Part shown: piece by piece, positions 15,386 to 28,880 of the stretch
How the letters are laid out: every line of letters starts with the position of its first letter
How positions within the stretch are numbered: position 1 is the first letter of the stretch
Source of the DNA: Pseudorhodoferax sp. Leaf274
Lineage (GTDB): Bacteria; Pseudomonadota; Gammaproteobacteria; Burkholderiales; Burkholderiaceae_C
Assembly (NCBI RefSeq): GCF_001422445.1
Contig: NZ_LMNA01000023.1
Coordinates: 322,362-386,361 of the forward strand
Direction: 5' to 3'
Length of the DNA stretch: 64,000 nt
The notes under the pieces: model-generated
Database searches by the model: none
What the model was told of the DNA's origin: nothing
What the model saw: only the letters and a program-made list of their open reading frames with translations
Position numbers and translations under genes: made by a program

Positions 15386-16366
15386 TCATTGCGGCACCAG
15401 TCCCGACGCCTTGACCAGTTCGGCGTGCAGCCGGCTCTCGTCCGAGATCGTCTTGGCGAACTGCTCGGGCGTGGTCGGTGCCACGTCCATGCCCGCCTCG
15501 CGCAGCTGGGCCTTCACGTCGTCGCTGTCCAGGATGCCGCGGATCTGCTGGTTCAGCTGGTCGATCAGCGGGCGCGGCGTGCGGGCCGGGGCCAGCATGC
15601 CGATCCAGGTCTGGAACACCATGTTGTCGATGCCGGCCTCGCGCATGGTGGGCACGTCGGCGATCAGTGGCGAGCGTTGCTCGCTCATGATGGCCAGCGC
15701 AGTGAGCTTGCCGGCCTTGATGTGGGGCAGGGCCTCGGGCAGGGGCGCGAACAGCATGTCCACGTTGCCGCCCAGCAGGTCGTTGATGGCCAGCGCGCCG
15801 CCCTTGTAGGGGATGTGCACCATGCGCACCTTCATGCGCGTCTCGAACATCAGCGCGGCCAGGTGCTGCGGGCTGCCGTCGCCGGACGAGGCATAGTTCA
15901 CGGCCTCGGGCTTGGCCCGGGCGGCCGCCAGCACCGCGCCGGCACTGGCGAACTTCTGCCGGTCCTTGACCACCAGCACCATGGACTGGTTGGCCAGCTT
16001 GGTGATGGGCGCGAAGTCGGTCTCGGCGTCGTAGGGCATCTCCTTGAAGATGTGCTTGTTGGTCGTCAGGAACGAGGCCGGCGAGGCCATCAGCGTGTAG
16101 CCGTCCGGCGCGGCCTTGGCCACCAGCGGCAGCCCGATGCGGCCCGAGGCGCCGGCCCGGTTGTCGACCACGTAGGGCTGCCCGTTCAGCGCGGCCAGCT
16201 TCTGCCCGACCAGGCGCGCGATCATGTCCACGCCGCCGCCGGCCGGCAGCGCCACCATGAGCTTGACGGGGTGGTCGGGGTACTTGCCCTGGGCCGCGGC
16301 CGGCAGGGCAGGGGCCAGCATGCCGAGCAGGCAGGCCAGCAGGGAAAGGCGGCGTTGGATGGTCAT
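15386..16366 (-). CDS. Tripartite tricarboxylate transporter receptor (TctC/Bug)
   Basis: 326 residues with a Sec signal peptide ending AAAQG, then the Bug-family markers YPDHPVKLMVALPAGGGVD, a VDNRAGASGRIG loop, AKAAPDGYTLM, and HIPYKGGALAINDLLGG, which form the carboxylate-binding pocket. Periplasmic receptor for an unknown organic anion. No TctA/TctB membrane genes are linked, as is usual for the expanded orphan Bug set of Burkholderiales. A TTGGAG site precedes the ATG. Confidence 0.93.
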   Translation of the reverse strand: MTIQRRLSLLACLLGMLAPALPAAAQGKYPDHPVKLMVALPAGGGVDMIARLVGQKLAALNGQPYVVDNRAGASGRIGLPLVAKAAPDGYTLMASPASFLTTNKHIFKEMPYDAETDFAPITKLANQSMVLVVKDRQKFASAGAVLAAARAKPEAVNYASSGDGSPQHLAALMFETRMKVRMVHIPYKGGALAINDLLGGNVDMLFAPLPEALPHIKAGKLTALAIMSEQRSPLIADVPTMREAGIDNMVFQTWIGMLAPARTPRPLIDQLNQQIRGILDSDDVKAQLREAGMDVAPTTPEQFAKTISDESRLHAELVKASGLVPQ

Positions 16367-17564: not shown

Positions 17565-18578
17565 TCAGCCCGGTGCGGACGATCCCCGCGCCACCAGCTG
17601 TCCCTCAAGCAACACCCGCCGCGCCGGCCCGTCGTGGCCCTGCAGCCGCTCGATCAGGCAGCGCGCCGCGCCTTCGCCGATGGCGTCGGTGGGCTGGGCG
17701 ATGCAGGTGAGGCCCGGGCCGATCAGCGATGCCCAGTCGGGATCGTCGAACCCGGCGAAGCCCAGGTCGGTGCCGAACTGCCAGCCGAGCTGGCGCACGG
17801 CATGTGCCACGCGCAGCGTGACCACCGCGTTGCCGGCCACCACGGCGGGGCGCCGCCGCTTGCCGGCGCGTTGGCGCAGCGCCACCAGGGCGGCCACCAG
17901 CGCGGCGTCGGCCCCCTCGGCGCTCTCGAACACGTTGCCGGCCACCGGGGGCTGCAGGCAGCCGCCGAAGGCCGCCGTGCGCTCGCGCCGGGTGCTGACG
18001 CCGGCCACGGGCTCGGTCACGTACAGCAGCTCCTGCCAGCCGCCGGCCTGCAGGTGGGCGCAGAGCTGGGCCATGGCGCCGGCGTTGTCCAGCGCCACGA
18101 AGTCGGCCAGCATGCCGGTATGGCGCCGGTCGATCAGCACCACGGGCTTGCCCTGCGCGGCCACGGCATCGGGCACGCTGTGGCCGCGGCCCAGCGTGTT
18201 GAGGATGAAGCCATCCACCTGGTAGCCGGCCAGCGCCTCGATCGCCTCGCGTTCGCGGCCCGGCTCGTTGCCCAGGTTGAACAGCATCACGAGGTAGCCG
18301 GCATCGCGGCAGGCCCGCTCTGCACCGCGCAGCACGGCCACGGAGTAGGGGTTGGCGATGTCGGCCACGACCAGGCCGATCAGGCGCGAGCGGCCGCGGC
18401 TCAACGCCTGGGCCATGGGGCTGGGCGCGTAGCCGAGCTGGTCGATGGCGGCCTGCACGCGCGCGGCGATGTCCGGGCTCAGCAGGCGTTCGCGGTGGTT
18501 GAAGAAGCGCGAGACCGTGGCCTTGGAGACGCCGGCCGCGGCGGCCACGTCGGAGATGGTCGGCCGGGCGGCGCTCAT
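17565..18578 (-). CDS. ptxS: LacI-family repressor of 2-ketogluconate utilisation (PtxS-like)
   Basis: 337 residues from ATG 18578. The N-terminal helix-turn-helix reads TISDVAAAAGVSKATVSRFF and is followed by a hinge and periplasmic-binding-like sensor (LIGLVVADIANPYSVAVLRG, DGFILNTLGRG). The wording resembles PtxS of pseudomonads, and the operon promoter carries a perfect copy of the PtxS operator palindrome (23737-23750), so I name it with fair confidence. PtxS represses in the absence of 2-ketogluconate and releases DNA on binding it. As last gene of the operon it would be autoregulated. Alternative: another sugar-acid LacI repressor sharing this operator. Confidence 0.75.
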   Translation of the reverse strand: MSAARPTISDVAAAAGVSKATVSRFFNHRERLLSPDIAARVQAAIDQLGYAPSPMAQALSRGRSRLIGLVVADIANPYSVAVLRGAERACRDAGYLVMLFNLGNEPGREREAIEALAGYQVDGFILNTLGRGHSVPDAVAAQGKPVVLIDRRHTGMLADFVALDNAGAMAQLCAHLQAGGWQELLYVTEPVAGVSTRRERTAAFGGCLQPPVAGNVFESAEGADAALVAALVALRQRAGKRRRPAVVAGNAVVTLRVAHAVRQLGWQFGTDLGFAGFDDPDWASLIGPGLTCIAQPTDAIGEGAARCLIERLQGHDGPARRVLLEGQLVARGSSAPG

Positions 18579-18593
18579 GGGTTCACCGCCACG

Positions 18594-18612
18594 CTCCCCC
18601 GCTGCGCGGGAG
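18594..18612. repeat. Small GC hairpin between kguD-like and ptxS-like genes
   Basis: CCCGC-TGC-GCGGG (18598-18610), extended by a bulged CT/AG pair, in the 71-base gap of the operon. It could trim or pause the transcript before the repressor gene, lowering its share, or be a dispersed palindrome. Confidence 0.4.
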
Positions 18613-18649
18613 GGCGCGCGGGCTGGCCTGCGGCGGCCCGGCGCTGCGC

Positions 18650-19621
18650 TCATGCCGTGCGGGTGTCGTAGGCCGCGGGCGGCTGCTGGCCGGCCAGCAC
18701 CGCCAGCAGGTTGGTCACGGCCAGCGCGGCCATGGCGTGGCGCGTCTCGGCCGTGGCCGAGCCGATGTGCGGCAGCGGCGTCACGCGCGGGTGCGTGCGC
18801 AGTGGCGAATCGGCTGGCAAGGGCTCCTTGGCGAACACGTCCAGGCCGGCCGCGCGCAGCGGGCCGTGGTCCAGCGCGTGCAGCAGCGCGGCCTCGTCGA
18901 CGGTGGCGCCGCGCCCGCCGTTGACGAAGATGCTGCCGGGCTTCATCTGCGCGAACAGCTCGGCGTTCAGCATGCCGCGCGTGGCATCGGACAGCGGCAG
19001 CATGGCGACCACGAAGTCGGCGCGCGGCAGCAGTTCGGCCAGCGGGGTGTGCTGGGCCTTGCCCACGAGTTCGGGCGCCTGCGCCGCCAGGTCGACCGGC
19101 CGGCGCGCGTGGTAAAGCACGGGCATGCCGAAGCCCAGCGCGGCACGCCGCGCGATGGCCTGGCCGATGCGGCCGAAGCCCAGGAGGCCCAGTGTCTTGT
19201 GGTGCACGTCCCAGCCGTACAGGTCTTCGCCCACGCTCTTCGTCCAGCGGCCCTCGCGGATCCACGTGGCCAGCTCGACCACGCGGCGGCTGGTGGCCAT
19301 GAGCAGGCCGAACACGGTGTCGGCCACGGTCTCGTCGAGCACGCCGGGCGTGTGGCACAGCACGATGCCGCGCTGCTGCAGCGCGGCCAGCGGGTAGTTG
19401 TCCACGCCGACCGAGACGCTGGAGACCACGCGCAGGCGCGGTGCCTTGTCCAGCAGCGCCGGCGTGATGGTGTAGCTGGCGCCGATGAGCCCCTCGGCCT
19501 GCGGCAGCGCGGCCTCGAACGCAGCCGGATCCAGCTTGGGCTCGGTGACGGTGACCTGGTGCACGGCCTGCAGGCGCGCGAGCTGGTCGGGCGGCAGCGC
19601 GCCGAAGACGACGACGTTCAT
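18650..19621 (-). CDS. kguD: 2-hydroxyacid dehydrogenase, probable 2-ketogluconate-6-phosphate reductase
   Basis: 323 residues from ATG 19621, which overlaps the kinase stop by four bases. D-2-hydroxyacid dehydrogenase fold: SSVSVGVDNY substrate-side strand, NAD(P) motif LGLLGFGRIGQAIARRA, catalytic Arg in VNGGRGATVDEAALL, Glu in DVFAKEPLP and His in LPHIGSATAETR. This is the GhrB/KguD branch. Given the PtxS-type operator and adjacent PfkB kinase, reduction of 2-keto-6-phosphogluconate to 6-phosphogluconate is the best reading; a general glyoxylate or hydroxypyruvate reductase is the alternative. Confidence 0.75.
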   Translation of the reverse strand: MNVVVFGALPPDQLARLQAVHQVTVTEPKLDPAAFEAALPQAEGLIGASYTITPALLDKAPRLRVVSSVSVGVDNYPLAALQQRGIVLCHTPGVLDETVADTVFGLLMATSRRVVELATWIREGRWTKSVGEDLYGWDVHHKTLGLLGFGRIGQAIARRAALGFGMPVLYHARRPVDLAAQAPELVGKAQHTPLAELLPRADFVVAMLPLSDATRGMLNAELFAQMKPGSIFVNGGRGATVDEAALLHALDHGPLRAAGLDVFAKEPLPADSPLRTHPRVTPLPHIGSATAETRHAMAALAVTNLLAVLAGQQPPAAYDTRTA

Positions 19622-20567
19622 AGTCCAGCCTCCTGCAACTGGGCCCGCGTGGGCAGGCCTTCGGTGTCGCCGATCACCTGCACGCAGCGCGCGCCGATCC
19701 ACGCGCCGCGGCGCACGGCCTCGGGCACGCTGAGCCCTTCGAGCAGGGCACTCACCACGCCGGCCGCAAAGCCGTCGCCCGCGCCCACGGTGTCGACGAC
19801 CTGCTCGACCGGGAAGCCCGGCGCGCGGCCGGTGCCGGCCACGTCGCTGTCGTAGTAGGCACCGTCGGCGCCGAGCTTCACGACGACCAGCCTGGCGCCT
19901 TGCGCACGGTAGAAGGCCGCCACGCGTTCCGGCGCGGTCTCGCCCGTCAGGATCTCACCTTCCTCGATGCCGGGCAGCACCCAGTCGGCGCGGGCGGCCA
20001 GGCCGTTGATGGCCTGCACCATGGCCTCACGGCTGGGCCACAGCATGGGCCGCAGGTTGGTGTCGAAGGACACCGTGCGGCCGGCGGCGCGCGCGATCTC
20101 CATGCTGCGGATGGCGGTGGGCAGCGTGGTGGCAGAAATGGCCGGGAACACGCCCGTGGCATGCAGATGGCGCGCGCTGCGCAGCCAGGCCTCGTCGATG
20201 TCGGCGGGCGCCATCTGGCTGGCGGCCGAGCCCTTGCGGTGGTATTCGACCGGCGGGTCGCTGCCGTCCGTCACGCGGCCCTTGAACTGGAAGCCGGTTT
20301 TCTGGCTCGCATCGCAGACCACGTGGCCGCAGTCGATGCCTTCGGCCTGCATGCTGCGCAGCAGGTAGCGGCCCATGCTGTCGGTCCCCAGCCGGCTCGC
20401 CCAGCCGACCTTGAAGCCCAGGCGCGCGAGGCCGATGGCGAAGTTCGTTTCTGCGCCGGCCGTGCGTTTGAGGAAGCCGGTGCAGTCCTCCAGCGGGCCG
20501 GCCTGGTCGGCGACCAGCAGCATCATGGCTTCGCCGAACACGGCGACGTCGAAAGCGGTGGAATCGT

Positions 20568-20571
<4 letters not shown>
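19618..20571 (-). CDS. kguK: PfkB-family sugar kinase, probable 2-ketogluconate kinase
   Basis: 317 residues. It opens with [12 protein letters not shown], typical of KdgK/KguK, has the first PfkB signature region [15 protein letters not shown], the sugar-acid-binding region, and the ATP/catalytic signature [15 protein letters not shown] with base Asp in GAGD. It phosphorylates a keto-sugar acid in the cytoplasm. Relatives act on 2-keto-3-deoxygluconate or 2-ketogluconate; the operator and adjacent reductase favour 2-ketogluconate. ATGA overlaps couple it to the ATPase gene upstream and the dehydrogenase downstream. Confidence 0.78.
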
Positions 20572-21326
<755 letters not shown>

Positions 21327-21384
21327 GTTGGCTCGTCTATGTTGGAAGGAGACTGGCGGTGTTGCGGGGTGCGTGGGCCGAGGC

Positions 21385-21473
21385 CACCGGGTGGCCCCTT
21401 CCGCGAATGTCCCCCGCCAGGGCCGCAGGCGGCCCAGGCTCCTCCTTTATTTCGCTGCAGGGGCCACCCAGTG
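21385..21473. repeat. Structured palindromic repeat inside the operon gap
   Basis: Outer arms of 14 bases (21385-21398 and 21460-21473, CACCGGGTGGCCCC type, 13 of 14 pairing) enclose an inner perfect hairpin GGGCCG-CAGG-CGGCCC (21420-21435). The roughly 90-base element fills the unusual gap between the binding-protein and ATPase genes. Folded in mRNA it would stabilise the upstream binding-protein message or reduce downstream expression. It looks like a dispersed intergenic palindrome. Confidence 0.6.
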
Positions 21474-21595
21474 CCCTCGACCCTGGACAAGTCGCGCCGT
21501 GCCGACGAATGCGAAGCGACGCTGCCAGACCGCGACGATGGTGTGCACCGTCGGCGCGGTCCCGCACCACCTTCACGCGTGCAAGCACAGCCAGC

Positions 21596-22372
21596 TCACA
21601 GCGCCGGGAAGTCCGTCCCCAGCCACTTCTGGTACAGCTTGTTCAGCTCGCCGTTCTTCTTGTTGCGCTCGACGAACTCGTCCAGCGTCTTCTTGAGCTC
21701 GGCCTGGCCGGGGCGCATGGCCACGCCCATGACCTGCTGGCGCAGGTTGAACTTGTTCTCGTAGGTGCCGGCGGGTGCGCGCTTGGCGATCTGCGCGGCC
21801 ACCGTGGTCGAGCAGCCGATGGCGTCGACCTGGCCCGACATCAGCGCCTGCATGGCCGAAGCGTCGTCGTCGAAGCGGCGGATCTCGGTGCCCTCGGGCG
21901 CGATGGCGGTCAATGCCACGTCCTGCGTGCTGGCGCGGGCCACGCCCACGCGCTTGCCCTTGAGGTCGGCGGCTTCCTTGAGCTGCACCTTGGCCGCGCC
22001 GTACAGCACGATGGTCGCGGCCGCGTAGGGCGTGGAGAAGTCGACCTGCTTGGCGCGCTCGGGCGTGATGGCCAGCGAGGCCACCAGCACGTCCACCTTG
22101 TTGGTCAGCAGGAACGGAATGCGGTTCGGGCCGGTGACCGGCACGATGTTGGCCTTCACGCCCAGGTCCTTGGCCAGCAGCCGGGCCACGTCGGCGTCGT
22201 AGCCGTCGGGCTGGTTCTGCGCGTTGGTCGTGCCGTAGGGCGGGAAGTCCACCAGCATGCCGATGGTGATCTCGCCCTTCTTCTTGATGTCGGCGACGGT
22301 CTGGGCCGCGGCGGGCAAGGCAAAGGCGGCGGCCAGGGTCAGCGCCAGGGCGGCGCGGCGGGTGGTGGTCAT
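21596..22372 (-). CDS. ABC transporter substrate-binding protein, polar amino acid type
   Basis: 258 residues with a signal peptide ending LPAAAQT. Family 3 solute-binding fold: VADIKKKGEITIGMLVDFPPYG, PDGYDADVARLLAKDLG, the anion-anchoring region LVASLAITPERAKQVDFS, and the hinge segment DLKGKRVGVA. Family members bind amino acids, but the operon's operator and enzymes point to a sugar acid such as 2-ketogluconate. Ligand therefore open. The neighbouring permease gene ends 28 bases away. Confidence 0.9.
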   Translation of the reverse strand: MTTTRRAALALTLAAAFALPAAAQTVADIKKKGEITIGMLVDFPPYGTTNAQNQPDGYDADVARLLAKDLGVKANIVPVTGPNRIPFLLTNKVDVLVASLAITPERAKQVDFSTPYAAATIVLYGAAKVQLKEAADLKGKRVGVARASTQDVALTAIAPEGTEIRRFDDDASAMQALMSGQVDAIGCSTTVAAQIAKRAPAGTYENKFNLRQQVMGVAMRPGQAELKKTLDEFVERNKKNGELNKLYQKWLGTDFPAL

Positions 22373-22400
22373 GGCAAGGTCTCCGGGTGGGTCGAAAGAA

Positions 22401-23054
22401 TCAGCGCGTGAGGGCAGCCGCGCGGCGCTTTTCCATGCGCGCGGCCAGCAGCGACAGCGGCCAGCAGATCACGAAGTAGACGGCGGCCACCGTGGTGAAC
22501 ACATGCAGCGGCTGGAAGGTGGCGTTGTTGATGATCTGGCCCGCGCGCGTGATCTCGGTGAAGCCGATGATGGCTGCCAGCGAGGTGCCCTTGATCACCT
22601 GCACGAGGTAGCCCACGGTGGGCGGCAGCGCGATCTTGAAGGCCTGCGGCAGGATCACGTCGCGCATGCGGTTCACGTACGACAGGTTCAGCGCCAGCGC
22701 CGCCTCGCGCTGGCCACCGGGCACGGCCTGGATACAGCCGCGCCAGATCTCGGCCAGGAAGGCTGCGGTGTTCAAGGTCAGCGCGATGCTGGCCGCCACC
22801 CAGGGATTGATGTCCAGCCCCAGCACCGGAAAGCCGAAGAAGATCAGGAACAGCTGCAGCAACAGCGGTGTGCCCTGGAACACCTGGATGAAGCCGGTGG
22901 CCAGGAACTGCGCGCCGCGGTGTTCGCTGGTGCGCGCCAGCGCGACCAGGAGGCCGAGCAGCGTGCCGCCGACGAAGGCGATGGCGGAGAGCGCCAGCGT
23001 CCACTTCGCCGCCTCGACGATGAACAGGAATTCTGACCAGCCAAAAGTGCGCAT
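22401..23054 (-). CDS. ABC transporter permease, polar amino acid type (second)
   Basis: 217 residues, about five membrane helices of the HisM/GlnP type. It shows FIQVFQGTPLLLQLFLIFFG, the AFLAEIWRGCIQAVPGGQREAALALNL coupling-loop region (EAA motif), and VILPQAFKIALPPTVGYLV. Forms a heterodimer channel with the adjacent permease. Its ATG shares one base with the upstream permease's stop codon region, so the pair is coupled. Confidence 0.92.
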   Translation of the reverse strand: MRTFGWSEFLFIVEAAKWTLALSAIAFVGGTLLGLLVALARTSEHRGAQFLATGFIQVFQGTPLLLQLFLIFFGFPVLGLDINPWVAASIALTLNTAAFLAEIWRGCIQAVPGGQREAALALNLSYVNRMRDVILPQAFKIALPPTVGYLVQVIKGTSLAAIIGFTEITRAGQIINNATFQPLHVFTTVAAVYFVICWPLSLLAARMEKRRAAALTR

Positions 23055-23725
23055 CACCGTTTGTCCGGGTAATTGAGGAACTGGCGGTGCACGAGCTTGA
23101 ACAGCCCCGCGAACGTCAACGCCAGCCCCAGGTAGATCAGCGTCACCACGATGTAGATCTCGAAGCTGCGGAAGGTCTGCGATTGCAGCGTGGCGGCCAC
23201 CGAGGTGAGGTCGTCGGCCGAGATCACCGAGACCACGGCCGAGGTCAGCATCAGCAGGATGAACTGGCTGGTCAGCGCCGGGTAGATGGCCTTGAGCGCG
23301 GGCTTGAGGACCACGAAGCGGAAGATCTCCCAGGCCTTGAGGTTCAGCGCGCGGCCGGCCTCGATCTGGCCCTTGGGGATGGACTCGATGCCGGCGCGGA
23401 TGATCTCGGTGGCGTAGGCGCCCAGGTTGACGACCATGGCCGTCAGCGCGGCCTGGTAGGGCGACCAGCGCAACCCGAACACCGGCAGCGCGAAAAAGAA
23501 GAAGAACAACTGCACCAGGAAGGGCGTGTTGCGGATCAGCTCGATGTAGGCCTGGATCAACCAGCGCAGCCAGGCCGGCCCGCCGGTCTTGCCCCAGGCG
23601 CACAGCACGGCCACCACCAGGCCCAGCACGGTGGCCGTGAGCGAGAGCTGCACGGTGATCCAGGTGCCCTTGAGCAGCAGCGGCCAGGCGTTGAAAACAG
23701 CGTCGAACTGGAATTGGTAGTTCAC
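23054..23725 (-). CDS. ABC transporter permease, polar amino acid type (first gene of operon)
   Basis: 223 residues from a GTG start; five predicted helices with IELIRNTPFLVQLFFFFFALP and the EAA region IRAGIESIPKGQIEAGRALNL. First gene of the seven-gene operon; the PtxS-type operator lies only 11 bases upstream of the GTG, so bound repressor would block the promoter or early transcription. The Shine-Dalgarno is weak (CTCCGG precedes), perhaps limiting transporter synthesis. Confidence 0.92.
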   Translation of the reverse strand: MNYQFQFDAVFNAWPLLLKGTWITVQLSLTATVLGLVVAVLCAWGKTGGPAWLRWLIQAYIELIRNTPFLVQLFFFFFALPVFGLRWSPYQAALTAMVVNLGAYATEIIRAGIESIPKGQIEAGRALNLKAWEIFRFVVLKPALKAIYPALTSQFILLMLTSAVVSVISADDLTSVAATLQSQTFRSFEIYIVVTLIYLGLALTFAGLFKLVHRQFLNYPDKR

Positions 23726-23736
23726 GGACCGGAGTA

Positions 23737-23750
23737 TGAAACCGGTTTCA
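23737..23750. promoter_or_regulatory. PtxS-type operator palindrome
   Basis: TGAAACCGGTTTCA is a perfect 14-base palindrome and is, letter for letter, the operator described for PtxS, the LacI-family repressor of 2-ketogluconate genes in Pseudomonas. It stands just before the first gene of an operon whose last gene is a PtxS-like LacI protein. No second copy was noticed in the window. Confidence 0.85.
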
Positions 23751-23849: not shown

Positions 23850-24830
23850 TTACTCCGCCTTGGCCCCCGACACCCGCACCTGCTCGGCCGCCAGCGGCAT
23901 CTGCTGCTGCACGAAGCTCCAGAACTCGTCCACGCCCATCGGCTTGACGGGCAGCGCGCCCTGGTCGATGAACTGCTTTTGCACCTCGGGGTTGCGCAGG
24001 GCCGTGGCCAGCGCGGCGTTCAGCTTGTCCAGCGCCGGGCGCGGCGTGCCGGCCGGGGCCACCAGGCCATACCACGAGTCGGTGTAGAAGCCCTTGACGC
24101 CGGCTTCCTCGAAGGTCGGCACGTCCGGCAGCGCGGGCAGGCGCTGGCGCGATGCCACGGCCAGCGGGCGCAGCTTGCCCGAGCGGATGAAGGACATCGC
24201 GCCCGTGGTCAGCACGAAGTCCACGCGGCCGGCCATCAGGTCGGTCATGGCCGGGGCCGTGCCCTTGAACGGGATGTGGGCCACGTCCACGCCGGTGATC
24301 TTCTTGAAGCTGGCGCCGGCCAGGTGCTGGCTGGAACCGACGCCGCCCGAGCCGTAGTTGAGCTTGCCCGGCTCGGCCTTGGCCGCCTTGAGCAGGTCGG
24401 CGACCGAGCGGAACGGCGAATCGGTGGGCACCAGCAGCACGCTGGGCGAGGTGGAGATCATGCCGATGGGCGCGAAGTCCTTCAGCGGGTCGTGGTTCAG
24501 CTTGGCGTACAGCACCGAGTTCAGGCCGTGCGATGCCACCGTGGCCAGCATGATGGTGCTGCCGTCCGGCCTGGCGCGGGCCACCGCATCGCTGCCGATG
24601 TTGCCGCCGGCGCCGCCCTTGTTGTCGATGACGATGGACTGGCCCAGTGCCTCGGCCATGCGCTGGGCGGTGAGCCGCGCGACGTTGTCCGAGGGGCCGC
24701 CCGCGGGCCAGCCGACGACCATGGTGACGGGGCCGGGTGGCAGGGCGCCCTGGGCGGCCGCGGGCACCGGGGGCAGGGCGATGGCGGCGAGGGCGAGCGC
24801 GGCGAAGCCACGGCGGGAGAGGGTGTGCAT
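23850..24830 (-). CDS. Tripartite tricarboxylate transporter receptor (TctC/Bug)
   Basis: 326 residues. The signal peptide carries SRRGFAAL, a plausible twin-arginine motif, and ends AAAQG. Mature part shows VTMVVGWPAGGPSD, IVIDNKGGAGGNIG, ARARPDGSTIM and HIPFKGTAPAMTDLMAG, the Bug ligand pocket. Periplasmic receptor for an unidentified carboxylate. It is the distal gene of a five-gene minus-strand cluster with an alpha-hydroxyacid oxidase and dehydrogenase, so an alpha-hydroxy or alpha-keto acid is a reasonable ligand. No TctAB genes nearby. Confidence 0.92.
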   Translation of the reverse strand: MHTLSRRGFAALALAAIALPPVPAAAQGALPPGPVTMVVGWPAGGPSDNVARLTAQRMAEALGQSIVIDNKGGAGGNIGSDAVARARPDGSTIMLATVASHGLNSVLYAKLNHDPLKDFAPIGMISTSPSVLLVPTDSPFRSVADLLKAAKAEPGKLNYGSGGVGSSQHLAGASFKKITGVDVAHIPFKGTAPAMTDLMAGRVDFVLTTGAMSFIRSGKLRPLAVASRQRLPALPDVPTFEEAGVKGFYTDSWYGLVAPAGTPRPALDKLNAALATALRNPEVQKQFIDQGALPVKPMGVDEFWSFVQQQMPLAAEQVRVSGAKAE

Positions 24831-24865: not shown

Positions 24866-25858
24866 TCATGGCTTGTCCTGCCAGGGCATCTCGCCCCAGA
24901 GCTTGCGGAAGCCCGCTTCGGTGGCCTGCAGTTCCGCCGCGTAGGCGGCCGGCGCGAGGTAGCGCAGTGGCGCGTACATGGCCTCGGCCTGCTGCTTGAA
25001 CGCCGGGTCGGCGGCGATGGCGGCCACGGCGTCGACCAGCTTCCTGCGCACGGCCTCGGGCAGGCCCTTGGGGGCGGCCAGGCCGCGCAGCGAGGCCAAT
25101 TCGATGGGGATGCCTTGCTCCTTGAAGGTGGGCACCTGCGGCGCCAGCGACGACCGCTCGGCCGACATCTGGCCCAGCAGCCGGATGGGCGTGCCGCCCT
25201 TCTGGTAGGCCAGCACCTCGCCGACGTTGATGGCGCCGATGACGATCTGCTGGCCCGTGGCGGCGGCGCGCACCTCGCCCGCGCCCTTGTACGGAACGTG
25301 CGTCAGGCGGGTGCCCGTGGCGCGCTCGAACAGCAGCATGGCCAGGTGGTCGTCCGAGCCCGTGCCGGTGGTGCCCACGGTGACGGCGCCCGGGTTGTCC
25401 CTGGCGTAGGCGGCCAGGCCGGCCAGCGTGGTGATGCCGTTGCCGTTGTGGATGGCGAAGGCGCCCGGGTCGTCCACCAGGTTGCCCAGCAGGTCGTACT
25501 GGCTCCAGTGGAAGCTGCTCTTGCGCTCGATCGGGATGGTCAGCACGTTGGGCGTGTTGATGAAGCCGATGGTGTAGCCGTCTGGCCTGGCACGCGCGAG
25601 TTCGCCGAAGCCGATGCCGCCGCCCGCGCCGGGGCGGTTCAGCACCACCACGCTGGCGCCGATCTGCTTTTCCAGGTGGCGGGCCAGCAGGCGCGCCACC
25701 AGGTCGGTGCCGCCGCCGGGACCGTAGGCCACGATCAGTTCGATGGGCTTGGCGGGGTAGGGCGCGTCGGGCTGTGCCACCGCATGCAGGTGGGGCAGGG
25801 CGAAGGCGGCTGCGGCGATGCCTGCGCACAGCGCGCGGCGGGTCCAGTGGTCGTTCAT
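24866..25858 (-). CDS. Tripartite tricarboxylate transporter receptor (TctC/Bug)
   Basis: 330 residues; N-terminus TRRALCAG is Tat-like and cleavage is expected after HAVAQ. Bug markers: KPIELIVAYGPGGGTDLVARLL, VLNRPGAGGGIGF, ARARPDGYTIG, and HVPYKGAGEVRAA. Second Bug protein of the same cluster, 35 bases upstream of the first, and clearly diverged from it, so the two probably bind different but related acids. The hydroxyacid dehydrogenase gene precedes it by 39 bases. Confidence 0.92.
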   Translation of the reverse strand: MNDHWTRRALCAGIAAAAFALPHLHAVAQPDAPYPAKPIELIVAYGPGGGTDLVARLLARHLEKQIGASVVVLNRPGAGGGIGFGELARARPDGYTIGFINTPNVLTIPIERKSSFHWSQYDLLGNLVDDPGAFAIHNGNGITTLAGLAAYARDNPGAVTVGTTGTGSDDHLAMLLFERATGTRLTHVPYKGAGEVRAAATGQQIVIGAINVGEVLAYQKGGTPIRLLGQMSAERSSLAPQVPTFKEQGIPIELASLRGLAAPKGLPEAVRRKLVDAVAAIAADPAFKQQAEAMYAPLRYLAPAAYAAELQATEAGFRKLWGEMPWQDKP

Positions 25859-25897: not shown

Positions 25898-26989
25898 TCA
25901 GGGTGCGCGTGCCGCGGCGATGCGTGCGCTGGCGCGTGGCCAGACCTCGGGGTTGACCAGGCGTTCGGGCCGCTGCCCATCGGCCAGCAGCTTCACGATC
26001 TGGGTCGCGGCCAGCGTGGCGTTGTTGCGCCGGGCCTCGTGCGTCACACCGGCCGTGTGGAAGGTGGCCACGACATGGGGCAGCCGCAGCAGTGGATGGT
26101 CGGCCGGCGGTGGCTCCTGCTCCCAGACGTCGAGCCCCGCGCCGCCCAGGTGGCCGCTGGCCAGGGCCGCGTGCAGGGCCGCCTCGTCGTGGATGCCGCC
26201 GCGCGCCGTGCTCACGAAGATGCTGCCCGGCCGCATGGCGGCGAACGCCGCGGCGTCCATGAGGCCCAGCGTGCCAGCGTCGCGCGGGCAGTGCAGCGAG
26301 ACGATGTCGGCGCGGCGCAGCAGCTCGTCCAGCGGCACCGCCACGGCGCCGCGCGCGGCCATCTCGCCGGCATCGAGCGCCGGGTCGACACCCAGCACCT
26401 GCATGCCGAAGGCGCGGCCCAGCGCGGCGGTGCGGCGGCCGGCCTCGCCCACGCCCACGATGCCCAGCGTGCGGCCACGCAGCTCGTGGCCCATCAGGTC
26501 TTCGCGGCTGAAGCCGCGGGCGCTGGCGCGCAGCCGCTGGTCGGATTCGGGGATGCGGCGCAGCACGGCCAGCATCAGGCCCAGCGCCATCTCGGCCACC
26601 GAGTCGGCGTTGCCGCCGGCCTGGTTCATGACCAGCACGCCGGCGCGCGTGCAGGCGCTGATGTCGATGGTGTCGCAGCCCGAGCCGCTGGACGAGACCG
26701 CCAGCAGCTGCGGGCAGCGCGCCAGCAGCTCGGGCGTGACGAACCAGCGGCGCGGCAGCTCGTCCTTGGCCGCGGTGATCTGCAGCACCTGGGCGTGGGC
26801 CAGCGCGCTCCAGGCCGCGTCGTCCGCGCCTTCCATGGCGCAGGTCTGGAGCAGCACGCCGGGGGCCTCGCCGACGATGCGGTCGAAGGCCGGGTCCAGC
26901 CAGTAGTTGAAGCGGACGACGCGGAGCGGCGAGCCTGCGCCCTGCAGGCTGCCGTGCCGATCCCCTTGGGGCGGGCTGGCGGTGCTCAC
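25898..26989 (-). CDS. D-isomer specific 2-hydroxyacid dehydrogenase
   Basis: 363 residues, with an unusual 20-residue N-terminal lead (an in-frame start within it is possible). Rossmann motif LGIVGVGEAGRRTAALG, catalytic Arg in STARGGIHDEAALH, Glu in DVWEQEPPP and His in ATFHTAGVTHEAR. It interconverts a 2-keto acid and a D-2-hydroxy acid with NAD(P)H in the cytoplasm; the SerA/GhrB-like type is visible but the substrate is not. It overlaps the RraA-like gene by four bases. Confidence 0.88.
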   Translation of the reverse strand: MSTASPPQGDRHGSLQGAGSPLRVVRFNYWLDPAFDRIVGEAPGVLLQTCAMEGADDAAWSALAHAQVLQITAAKDELPRRWFVTPELLARCPQLLAVSSSGSGCDTIDISACTRAGVLVMNQAGGNADSVAEMALGLMLAVLRRIPESDQRLRASARGFSREDLMGHELRGRTLGIVGVGEAGRRTAALGRAFGMQVLGVDPALDAGEMAARGAVAVPLDELLRRADIVSLHCPRDAGTLGLMDAAAFAAMRPGSIFVSTARGGIHDEAALHAALASGHLGGAGLDVWEQEPPPADHPLLRLPHVVATFHTAGVTHEARRNNATLAATQIVKLLADGQRPERLVNPEVWPRASARIAAARAP

Positions 26990-27663
26990 AGCGCGCCCTT
27001 CTCGCGCAGGCTGCGCAGCACCCAGCTGCGGTCGGCGCGGCCTTCGGCGATGGCTTGCAGCGCATCGGCCTCCACGCGCTGGATCGCCTCCACGCGCGCG
27101 GCGATGTCTTCGGCCTCCTCGGGCGGCACGGCCAGCAGGCCGTCGCCGTCCCCGACGACGATGTCGCCCGGCCGCACCACCATGCCGTCGATGCTGACCG
27201 GCACGTGCAGCTCGCCGGGGCCGTCCTTGTACGGGCCGCGGTGCGAGACGCCGCGCGCATACACCGGCAGGCTGTGCTGGGCGATGGTGTCGCTGTCGCG
27301 GATCAGGCCGTCGATGACGATGCCGGCGGCGCCGCGCGCGATCAGCAGCGCCAGCATGATCTCGCCGATGATGGCGTTGGGCCCCACGCCGCCGGCGTCC
27401 ACCACGAGCACGTCGCCCGGGGCGCAGGTGTCGATGGCGTGGTGCACGAGCAGGTTGTCGCCGGGCCGGGTGCGCACCGTCAGCGCGCGGCCCGCGAAGC
27501 CGCCCTCGCGCCGGTGGAACGGCTGGAGCGCCGACGTGCCCGTGGTGCGGCTCATCGCGTCGCTGACGTTGGCGACCTGGAAGCCGCGGTAGCGCGCGAG
27601 CAGCGCGTCGCTCACGGCCGGCGCCGGGCGCGCGTGGATGTGGAAGCCCTGGATCTTGCTCAT
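26986..27663 (-). CDS. RraA-like / HMG-CHA aldolase-fold protein
   Basis: 225 residues of the RraA / 4-hydroxy-4-methyl-2-oxoglutarate aldolase fold. Visible: FQVANVSDAMSR at the N-terminus, DNLLVHHAIDTCAPGDVLVVDA, GEIMLALLIARGAAGIVIDG and IRDSDTIA, giving the GExx...GxxRD metal and substrate site. In catabolic operons this fold usually acts as a divalent-metal aldolase or decarboxylase releasing pyruvate, rather than as the RNase E inhibitor. Located between an alpha-hydroxyacid oxidase and a hydroxyacid dehydrogenase, both overlapping it, so it likely acts on the same carbon skeleton. Confidence 0.87.
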   Translation of the reverse strand: MSKIQGFHIHARPAPAVSDALLARYRGFQVANVSDAMSRTTGTSALQPFHRREGGFAGRALTVRTRPGDNLLVHHAIDTCAPGDVLVVDAGGVGPNAIIGEIMLALLIARGAAGIVIDGLIRDSDTIAQHSLPVYARGVSHRGPYKDGPGELHVPVSIDGMVVRPGDIVVGDGDGLLAVPPEEAEDIAARVEAIQRVEADALQAIAEGRADRSWVLRSLREKGAL

Positions 27664-28880
27664 GGGTGGTTCTCGGTGAGGGGAAAGTCGGCGGCGCTGG
27701 CCACCGGGCGGATGCAGGCCGGCGTGATGTCGGCGATGCGGGTCAGCCCCAGCATGGCCATGTCGCGCGAGATCTCCTCGCGCAGCAGCGCGATGCCATG
27801 GGCCACGCCGGCCTGCCCGGCGACCGCCGCCGCGTAGTTGAACGGCCGGCCCACGAACACGCAGCGCGCGCCGAGCGCCAGTGCCTTCACGGCATCGGTG
27901 CCGCGGCGCACGCCGCTGTCCAGCATCACGGGCAGGCCGGGCACGGCGCGCACGATGGAGGCCAGTACGCGCAGCGGCGCCACCGCGCCGTCGAGCTGGC
28001 GGCCGCCGTGGTTGGAGACGATCAGGCCGTCGGCGCCATGGTCGCGCGCGACGGAGGCGTCCTCGGCCGCCAGGATGCCCTTGACGACCAGCTGGCCGGT
28101 CCAGCGCTTGCGGATGGCGGCCAGGTGCGGCCAGGCCAGGTGCGCCCGGTCGGAGAAATCGCGCAGCACGCTGGGCGAGAGGATGGGCGCGCCGCGCGTG
28201 GCGTAGTTGTTCTCGAAGTGCGGCATGCCGTGGCGCAGCAGCGTCTTGAGGAAGGTGCCGAGCAGCCAGCGCGGGTGGCTGAGGCCCTGCCAGGCCAGCG
28301 ACAGGCTGGGCTTGAGCGGCGTGGAAAAGCCCGCGCGCACGTTGTTCTCGCGGTTGGCCGCGACGGGCGTGTCCACCGTGATCACCAGGGTCTGCACGCC
28401 GGCGGCCTGCACGCGGTCCAGCAGGCCGTCGATCTGCGCCAGCTCGCCCGGCAGGTAGGCCTGGAACCAGGTTTGCGGCGCGGCGGCCATCACCTCCTCC
28501 AGCCGGATCAGCGAAGAGCCGCTCATGATGGCCGGCACGCCCGCCTGCTGCGCGGCCTGGGCCAGCACCACGTCGCCGCGGTAGGCCGAGAGCGCGGAGA
28601 TGCCCATGGGTGCCAGGCCGATGGGCGCCGCATAGCGCCGGCCGAACAGTTCGAAGCCCAGGTCGCGCTGCGCCACGCCGGCCAGCACGCGCGGGCGGAA
28701 GGCCAGGTCGGCGAAGGCCGCGCGGTTGGCCGCCAGCGAGCGGTTGTCTTCCACGGCACCGCTGATGTAGGCGTGGATGGGCCGCGGCAGGTGGCGCCGG
28801 GCCAGCGCCTCGAAGTCGTCCAGGCACAGCACCTGGCGGCAGGCACGGGGCAGGGTGGAAGCAGGGGCAACAGCGGGCAT
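27660..28880 (-). CDS. FMN-dependent alpha-hydroxyacid oxidase/dehydrogenase (LldD/MdlB family)
   Basis: 406 residues. TIM-barrel FMN enzyme oxidising an L-2-hydroxy acid to the 2-keto acid: YISGAVEDNRSLAANR, IGLAPMGISAL, WFQAYLPGE, LVITVDTPVAANRENNVR, VVKGILAAEDA, and the active-site SNHGGRQLD with the catalytic His. Relatives use lactate, glycolate, mandelate or 2-hydroxyisocaproate. First gene of the five-gene cluster, divergent from a LysR regulator. A membrane-binding insertion may be present around residues 190-220 (LAWQGLSHPRWLLGTFLK), as in lactate and mandelate dehydrogenases. Confidence 0.9.
   Translation of the reverse strand: MPAVAPASTLPRACRQVLCLDDFEALARRHLPRPIHAYISGAVEDNRSLAANRAAFADLAFRPRVLAGVAQRDLGFELFGRRYAAPIGLAPMGISALSAYRGDVVLAQAAQQAGVPAIMSGSSLIRLEEVMAAAPQTWFQAYLPGELAQIDGLLDRVQAAGVQTLVITVDTPVAANRENNVRAGFSTPLKPSLSLAWQGLSHPRWLLGTFLKTLLRHGMPHFENNYATRGAPILSPSVLRDFSDRAHLAWPHLAAIRKRWTGQLVVKGILAAEDASVARDHGADGLIVSNHGGRQLDGAVAPLRVLASIVRAVPGLPVMLDSGVRRGTDAVKALALGARCVFVGRPFNYAAAVAGQAGVAHGIALLREEISRDMAMLGLTRIADITPACIRPVASAADFPLTENHP

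What the first reader, a model, noticed from the sequence alone, without database searches (positions are those of the whole stretch)
17565..23750. PtxS-type 2-ketogluconate operon with an amino-acid-type ABC importer
The operon head carries TGAAACCGGTTTCA, identical to the known PtxS operator, and its tail encodes a PtxS-like LacI protein, a PfkB kinase and a KguD-like dehydrogenase. Pseudomonads import 2-ketogluconate with the MFS carrier KguT. Here four genes of the polar amino-acid ABC family take that position, tightly overlapped with the kinase. The inference is that this ABC branch has been recruited to carry a keto-sugar acid.
Basis: partly seen in the sequence, partly recalled or inferred. 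Interest (0 to 1): 0.75.

Follow-up and report, generated by a model that had tools for sequence, protein, structure and literature searches.

The report
ABC-fed 2-ketogluconate operon in Comamonadaceae
A soil bacterium seems to carry the genes for eating the sugar acid 2-ketogluconate, but with a pump of the amino-acid type in place of the usual uptake carrier; the same arrangement recurs in many related bacteria, so its 'amino-acid pump' label is probably wrong.

Summary
On the minus strand, 23750-17565, an exact PtxS operator (TGAAACCGGTTTCA) precedes two permeases, a binding protein and an ATPase of the polar-amino-acid ABC family. A PfkB kinase, a 2-ketogluconate-reductase-like dehydrogenase and a PtxS-like LacI repressor follow.

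The arrangement is conserved. Of 250 genomes of the family, 32 have the binding-protein ortholog. The exact operator occurs in 22 of those 32 and in 3 of the other 218. In the 29 loci whose contig goes beyond the ATPase, the kinase follows in 29, the dehydrogenase in 27, and a KguE homolog lies between ATPase and kinase in 21. These are kgu operons with an ABC importer in place of KguT. No close KguT relative was found in 14 genomes searched. Edd is present.

The binding protein keeps the carboxylate-binding Arg but has Ser where amino-acid receptors hold Asp for the amino group (80 of 80 named orthologs). The 20 paralogs that I checked lack this Asp too, so it is suggestive only.

Against: the kinase does not group with Klebsiella KguK; KguE was not found in the window's genus; the substrate is untested. 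My paper searches found no such operon. New variant of a known kind; interest 0.5.

The parts
23737..23750 (.). PtxS-type operator TGAAACCGGTTTCA, ends 11 bases before the first start codon
   Evidence: exact, unique in window and genome; identical to the published PtxS site (PMC11678583); conserved upstream of the orthologous permease, exactly in 65 of 78 named loci and with at most 1 mismatch in 72 of 78
23054..23725 (-). ABC permease 1, polar-amino-acid (His/Glu/Gln/Arg/opine) type
   Evidence: PF00528, TIGR01726 over cut-off
22401..23054 (-). ABC permease 2, same type
   Evidence: PF00528, TIGR01726 over cut-off
21596..22372 (-). periplasmic binding protein, SBP_bac_3 family; proposed 2-ketogluconate receptor; Arg106 kept, Ser188 at the amino-group Asp position
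   Evidence: PF00497; residues by alignment; predicted fold matches amino-acid receptors
21327..21595 (.). intergenic gap with inverted repeats (21375-21407/21451-21483, 33 nt, 85%; 21523-21543/21546-21566, 21 nt, 81%)
   Evidence: no terminator- or promoter-like match
20568..21326 (-). ABC ATPase, GlnQ type
   Evidence: PF00005; best NCBIfam match GlnQ 321 bits, under its cut-off of 379
19618..20571 (-). PfkB sugar-acid kinase, proposed 2-ketogluconate kinase (KguK position)
   Evidence: PF00294; 51-52% identity to Klebsiella KguK; tree
18650..19621 (-). D-isomer-specific 2-hydroxyacid dehydrogenase, KguD/GhrB-like, proposed 2-keto-6-phosphogluconate reductase
   Evidence: 52-56% identity to Klebsiella KguD; best PDB match 9m0t 'Probable 2-ketogluconate reductase', E 3.7e-73
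17565..18578 (-). LacI-family repressor, PtxS-like
   Evidence: 41% to Klebsiella PtxS, 255 bits against 152 for the next LacI protein of the genome

Best explanation
This is a kgu (2-ketogluconate utilization) operon in which the importer is a four-gene polar-amino-acid-type ABC system instead of the carrier KguT. Proposed mechanism: without inducer the LacI protein sits on 23737-23750 and blocks transcription. 2-ketogluconate, probably scavenged from outside, is bound by the periplasmic protein, brought in by the two permeases and the ATPase, phosphorylated by the PfkB kinase, reduced by the dehydrogenase to 6-phosphogluconate and passed to the Entner-Doudoroff pathway. Intracellular 2-ketogluconate releases the repressor. 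Shown by sequence: genes, operator, conservation, presence of Edd. Inferred: substrate, enzyme activities, repression, inducer.
For: Operator exact and unique. In 250 family genomes the SBP ortholog (>=71% identity; next relative 52%) is in 32; the exact operator is in 22 of these 32 and in 3 of the other 218 (Fisher p 6.7e-21). A further 8 of 32 have a pair of palindromes with 1-2 mismatches upstream of permease 1; 2 of 32 have none. In the 29 of 32 loci whose contig goes beyond the ATPase, the kinase follows in 29, the dehydrogenase in 27, a LacI gene is in 26 and a KguE homolog in 21 (recount 106). The homolog is 38-40% identical to Klebsiella KguE, E about 1e-49. Named set: 80 orthologs, 78 with permeases. 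Klebsiella PtxS finds the window's LacI first, 255 against 152 bits. The dehydrogenase matches KguD and 9m0t. Best KguT-like hits at E<=1e-40 in 14 genomes are 28-31% identical. Edd over its cut-off. Ser at the amino-group Asp position in 80 of 80 orthologs. Other transporters occupy or adjoin the same operon type: a divergent ABC (46-52%) in L069, and a DctP protein after kguD in 3 loci of one genus.
Against: No ligand, uptake or growth data. The kinase groups with other Comamonadaceae kgu-operon kinases (93/91) and four kinases from other settings, but not with Klebsiella KguK. Kinases 54-66% identical to it sit beside an altronate-type dehydratase or within about 1.5 kb of a D-mannonate dehydratase, so it could be a KDG-type kinase. 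KguE was not found in the window's genus and five other operon genomes, 0 of 8 (which had no positive control). Gluconate 2-dehydrogenase (PF13618) is not enriched, 7 of 32 against 27 of 218, p 0.17, and was not found in this genome. 20 of 20 paralogs that I chose also lack the Asp.
Confidence: 0.77

Rival explanations
1. The operon handles a different 2-keto sugar acid (for example 2-keto-L-gulonate or 2-ketogalactonate), another keto-gluconate, or a mixture; the ABC, reductase and repressor are tuned to that ligand.
For: The same ABC branch (56-66% SBP identity) sits in kinase-free operons with a 2-hydroxyacid dehydrogenase and a LacI protein in Azospirillum, Rhizobium and Sinorhizobium, and with an arabinonate-type dehydratase and a 72%-identical dehydrogenase on a Variovorax plasmid. 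A 52% relative lies next to an SDR and a FAA hydrolase whose best match is 2,4-didehydro-3-deoxy-L-rhamnonate hydrolase, 431 bits, cut-off 500. None of these loci has the operator within 2 mismatches.
Against: The kinase + KguD-like reductase + KguE homolog + PtxS-like repressor + exact PtxS operator set is the known 2-ketogluconate set (PMC11678583).
Confidence: 0.13
2. The transporter imports an amino acid or amino-sugar acid (for example D-glucosaminate) and only shares the operon.
For: Family membership; nearest solved structures are amino-acid receptors, 22-35% identity. An ABC system of this family for D-glucosamine/glucosaminate in pseudomonads is recalled, not retrieved.
Against: Ser at the amino-group Asp position in 80 of 80 orthologs; no ammonia-lyase, deaminase or aminotransferase among the seven operon genes; linkage to kinase and keto-acid reductase.
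Confidence: 0.06
3. The operator match is generic to LacI proteins and the cluster is an unrelated sugar-acid operon (for example 2-keto-3-deoxygluconate uptake with a KDG kinase).
For: Related kinases neighbour mannonate- or altronate-type dehydratases; AACCGGTT-centred palindromes are common among LacI-family sites (recalled).
Against: A KDG kinase would need no 2-keto-acid reductase, yet one is linked in 27 of 29; KguE homolog in 21 of 29.
Confidence: 0.04

Closest known systems
kgu operon of Pseudomonas (ptxS; kguE-kguK-kguT-kguD)
   Same: identical 14-bp operator; LacI repressor, PfkB kinase, 2-hydroxyacid dehydrogenase; in most relatives also a KguE homolog. No Pseudomonas protein was compared directly; Klebsiella stood in.
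   Different: importer is a four-gene amino-acid-type ABC system instead of KguT; the window's genus has no kguE; LacI at the tail of the operon here
Klebsiella kgu cluster (PtxS, KguE, KguK, an MFS protein in the KguT position, KguD; LR134124.1, CP125156.1)
   Same: homologs of PtxS (41%), KguK (51-52%), KguD (52-56%); relatives' KguE 38-40%
   Different: MFS carrier (PF07690); kinase in a different clade; names are annotations, not experiments that I saw
Polar-amino-acid-uptake ABC family (GlnHPQ, HisJQMP, ArtJMQP)
   Same: all four subunits
   Different: amino-group Asp of the receptor replaced by Ser; operon context is sugar-acid catabolism
Amino-acid-type receptors of sugar conjugates (SocA with deoxyfructosylglutamine or glucopine, PDB 6hqh, 5l9o)
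   Same: same fold family, 28-29% identity; precedent that this family can hold a sugar moiety
   Different: those ligands are Amadori or opine compounds that still hold an amino-acid part (recalled)

Membership tests
kgu / PtxS regulon | PtxS operator 5'-TGAAACCGGTTTCA at the operon head | tested here: met
kgu / PtxS regulon | PtxS-type LacI repressor | tested here: met
   best hit of Klebsiella PtxS in the genome, 255 against 152 bits, 41% identity; binding and inducer not tested
kgu / PtxS regulon | KguD-type 2-keto-(6-phospho)gluconate reductase | tested here: met
   52-56% to Klebsiella KguD; 9m0t best in PDB; activity not tested
kgu / PtxS regulon | KguK 2-ketogluconate kinase | tested here: inconclusive
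   PfkB, 51-52% to Klebsiella KguK but not in one clade with it
kgu / PtxS regulon | KguE epimerase-like protein | tested here: not met
   absent from the window's operon and not found in its genome (no positive control in that call); present in 21 of 29 relatives' operons. In P. plecoglossicida loss of kguE slows but does not stop 2-ketogluconate use (PMC11678583)
kgu / PtxS regulon | carrier KguT | tested here: not met
   ABC genes instead; best match of Klebsiella KguT in this genome is 28% identical
Polar-amino-acid ABC importer | two TIGR01726-type permeases, SBP_bac_3 receptor, ABC ATPase | tested here: met
Polar-amino-acid ABC importer | receptor residues for the alpha-carboxylate (Arg) and alpha-amino group (Asp) | tested here: not met
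   Arg106 kept 80 of 80, Asp replaced by Ser 80 of 80; in this genome 10 of 15 well-aligned family-3 receptors have Asp; residue roles are recalled
2-ketogluconate importer | binds and transports 2-ketogluconate | not testable with these tools
   needs ligand binding and mutant growth

The most novel reading that the evidence does not exclude
A whole sub-branch of the 'amino acid' ABC family, recognisable by loss of the amino-group Asp and spread from Comamonadaceae to Azospirillum, Rhizobium, Sinorhizobium and Microvirga, imports 2-keto and related sugar acids. Kinase-bearing (kgu) and kinase-free (direct reductase or dehydratase) operons are two ways to use what it brings in, and transporters have been exchanged more than once in the kgu operon.
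Probability: 0.55. Interest if true: 0.62.

Novelty: new variant of a known kind. Interest (0 to 1): 0.5.

Why it matters
In P. aeruginosa KguT is the only way in for 2-ketogluconate (PMC6237876, passages). If this ABC system is the importer in Comamonadaceae such as Variovorax, Acidovorax and Polaromonas, its permeases and ATPase, labelled 'amino acid ABC transporter' in the annotated records that I opened, need a new name. Models of who takes up the 2-ketogluconate that glucose-oxidizing bacteria release would change, and there would be a periplasmic receptor from which a 2-ketogluconate sensor could be made. It also offers a test of how a receptor moves from amino acids to keto-acids.

Tried and rejected
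Gluconate 2-dehydrogenase as supporting evidence: rejected. PF13618 is in 7 of 32 operon genomes against 27 of 218 others (p 0.17; 4 of the 34 genomes are under the curated cut-off) and was not found in this genome.

Loss of the receptor Asp as a private mark of this clade: rejected. All 20 of 20 paralogs at 36-43% identity that I picked from the list and 5 of 5 at 42-46% (L068-L072) lack it too. It is still a minority state in the genome: of 17 SBP_bac_3 hits, 15 aligned at over 60 bits: 10 Asp, 1 Glu, 4 neither. In one search two of these rows had taken a neighbour's reading frame; redid them with the right frames and the count stayed 10 of 15. One of the ten (L253) lacks the Arg and is doubtful.

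Kinase phylogeny as proof of KguK: rejected (56 rows). I left 15 fetched loci out of it by name (paralogs without a kinase, contig ends, loci already counted); the length and stop filter then dropped none. The outgroup branch is very long, so the root is not meaningful.

Operators in the alphaproteobacterial loci: none within 2 mismatches. Klebsiella L081 has a 3-mismatch palindrome that begins 61 bases before kguE.

Class-wide kinase search (369 genomes, E<=1e-50): 1 genome besides the own one. It tells little, since few relatives were in the draw.

Papers: the searches listed no paper whose title or abstract start reports an ABC-type 2-ketogluconate importer; I opened passages or sections of six listed papers only. 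The library holds open-licence papers. The LacI regulon review PMC4052901 has no 'ketogluconate' in its main text; PMC9007349 was searched for terms only.

Promoter and terminator scans: nothing. Structure: the model and its PDB matches say no more than the sequence.
Full report
What is there. The minus strand of 23750-17565 holds seven genes behind one operator. The 14-mer TGAAACCGGTTTCA at 23737-23750 is exact and occurs once in the window (0 of 100 shuffles) and once in the 6.7 Mb genome. The genes are permease, permease, binding protein, ATPase, PfkB kinase, 2-hydroxyacid dehydrogenase and LacI protein. ATPase/kinase and kinase/dehydrogenase overlap by four bases. A 269-base gap with long inverted repeats lies between binding protein and ATPase. 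The closest named relative of the binding protein is in Pseudorhodoferax soli (99%), so the genome is probably a Pseudorhodoferax.

Is the operator more than chance? In 250 genomes of the same family, 32 hold a binding-protein ortholog of 71% identity or more; the next relative is at 52%. The exact 14-mer is in 25 of 250 genomes: 22 of the 32 with the ortholog and 3 of the 218 without (Fisher p 6.7e-21). In all 22 it lies within 260 bases upstream of permease 1. Of the other 10 operon genomes, 8 have a pair of palindromes there with 1-2 mismatches each, 20-30 bases apart, and 2 have none. Where the LacI gene lies upstream on the same strand, 18 of 19 loci have a further site with 1-2 mismatches before it, which suggests autoregulation. 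The three genomes without the ortholog but with the exact site (G018 with two sites, G126, G188) were fetched about 5 kb to each side; no operon gene lies near those four sites.

Is the gene set conserved? Of the 32 loci, 29 have contigs that go beyond the ATPase. There the kinase follows in 29, the dehydrogenase in 27, a LacI gene is upstream or downstream in 26 (one of the three misses is a contig end), and a TIM-barrel gene between ATPase and kinase is in 21 (recount). That gene matches Pfam AP_endonuc_2 and the Klebsiella protein annotated KguE at 38-40% identity, E about 1e-49. In a second, partly overlapping set of 80 named orthologs (the best 80 of 441 stretches found), 78 have the permeases and two are lone binding proteins. 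Of the 78: ATPase 76, kinase 73, dehydrogenase 70, LacI 71, KguE homolog 60, exact operator 65, operator with at most one mismatch 72; several contigs are short. The set includes Variovorax, Acidovorax, Polaromonas, Pseudacidovorax, Xylophilus, Xenophilus, Rhodoferax and two Noviherbaspirillum.

Comparison with the known operon. In Pseudomonas the kgu operon is kguE-kguK-kguT-kguD with PtxS binding the same 14-mer (PMC11678583, passages, section 3.2). There, loss of kguT or kguD almost abolishes 2-ketogluconate use, and loss of kguK or kguE only slows it, so an operon without kguE can be functional. In P. aeruginosa KguT is the only entry route (PMC6237876, passages). Here the LacI protein is the best hit of Klebsiella PtxS in the genome (255 against 152 bits). 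The dehydrogenase is 52-56% identical to Klebsiella KguD and its best PDB match is 'Probable 2-ketogluconate reductase' 9m0t. The Edd dehydratase that takes 6-phosphogluconate further is present (916.8 bits, cut-off 708.25). For KguT of Klebsiella the best hits at E<=1e-40, in 7 of 14 genomes, are 28-31% identical. The Klebsiella names come from annotation, not from experiments that I saw, and no Pseudomonas sequence was compared directly.

The transporter slot varies. L069 (G044) has a different amino-acid-type ABC (46-52%) between operator and kguE. Three genomes of one genus (L116-L118) have operator-kguE-kinase-dehydrogenase, then a shikimate-dehydrogenase-like gene and a DctP-type receptor, with no ABC gene like the window's within the 16 kb fetched (families tested on L118 only). 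That DctP serves this operon is inference.

The receptor. Aligned with AncQR, the Arg that holds the carboxylate is kept (Arg106) and the Asp that holds the amino group is Ser188: 80 of 80 named orthologs for both (residue roles recalled from GlnH). The L069 receptor has Pro there. Within this genome 10 of 15 well-aligned receptors have Asp. Yet 20 of 20 of the paralogs that I picked lack it, so the loss marks a larger sub-branch. The predicted structure (mean pLDDT 78.4) matches amino-acid receptors, as the sequence already said.

Beyond the family. Orthologs of 56-66% identity occur on plasmids of Azospirillum, Rhizobium, Neorhizobium, Sinorhizobium and Microvirga (I opened 8 of the 25 listed records; 2 are Variovorax, and 1 of the 6 alphaproteobacterial ones has no annotation). 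In 4 of the 5 annotated alphaproteobacterial records the four ABC genes are followed by a 2-hydroxyacid dehydrogenase with a LacI gene adjacent and no annotated kinase; Microvirga is the exception. A Variovorax plasmid has an arabinonate-type dehydratase, the ABC and a dehydrogenase 72% identical to the window's. The ABC is thus often tied to 2-keto-acid reduction even without a kinase, which fits an unphosphorylated keto-sugar acid as cargo. A 52% relative in G188 follows an SDR and a FAA hydrolase close to 2,4-didehydro-3-deoxy-L-rhamnonate hydrolase, again a sugar-acid setting.

Results against. The kinase tree puts the Comamonadaceae kgu-operon kinases together (37 rows, 93/91: 30 from ABC operons, 3 from the DctP genus, 4 from other settings) but Klebsiella KguK elsewhere, among kinases one of which sits beside an altronate-type dehydratase. 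Two more distant rows lie within about 1.5 kb of a D-mannonate dehydratase. The substrate of the kinase is not settled by sequence. KguE was not found in the genomes of the 8 operons that lack it, the window's genus included (no positive control). The enzyme that makes 2-ketogluconate is not enriched in operon genomes, so scavenging is more likely than self-supply.

Verdict. A well-conserved kgu operon variant with an amino-acid-type ABC importer. Genes, operator and conservation are shown; the 2-ketogluconate cargo is inferred with about 0.77 confidence.

Noticed in passing
window 21327-21595: 269-base gap inside the operon with a 33-nt inverted repeat around GGGGCCACCC and a second 21-nt one; looks like a REP-like intergenic element and splits the ABC genes.
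   Followed up: partly
window 15386-16366, 23850-24830, 24866-25858: Three TctC (Bug-type) receptors flank the operon, near a 2-hydroxyacid dehydrogenase (25898-26989), an RraA-like gene (26986-27663) and an FMN-dependent dehydrogenase (27660-28880).
   Followed up: partly
L086 6917-7705; also L168, L171: Lone copies of the binding protein (79-84% identical) without permeases of this kind; in L086 (Variovorax paradoxus plasmid) it lies next to RraA, TctC and hydroxy-acid oxidase genes, like the cluster next to the operon in the window.
   Followed up: no
L116-L118: One genus has the kgu operon followed by a shikimate-dehydrogenase-like gene and a DctP-type receptor.
   Followed up: partly
L067 5472-10379 (turned so that the ABC genes are on +): A 52% relative of the receptor sits with an SDR and a FAA hydrolase near 2,4-didehydro-3-deoxy-L-rhamnonate hydrolase, suggestive of a deoxy-sugar-acid pathway.
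   Followed up: partly
window 23726-23736: Only 11 bases without a clear ribosome-binding site lie between operator and the first GTG; most relatives have a wider spacing. A very short leader is possible in this genus.
   Followed up: no
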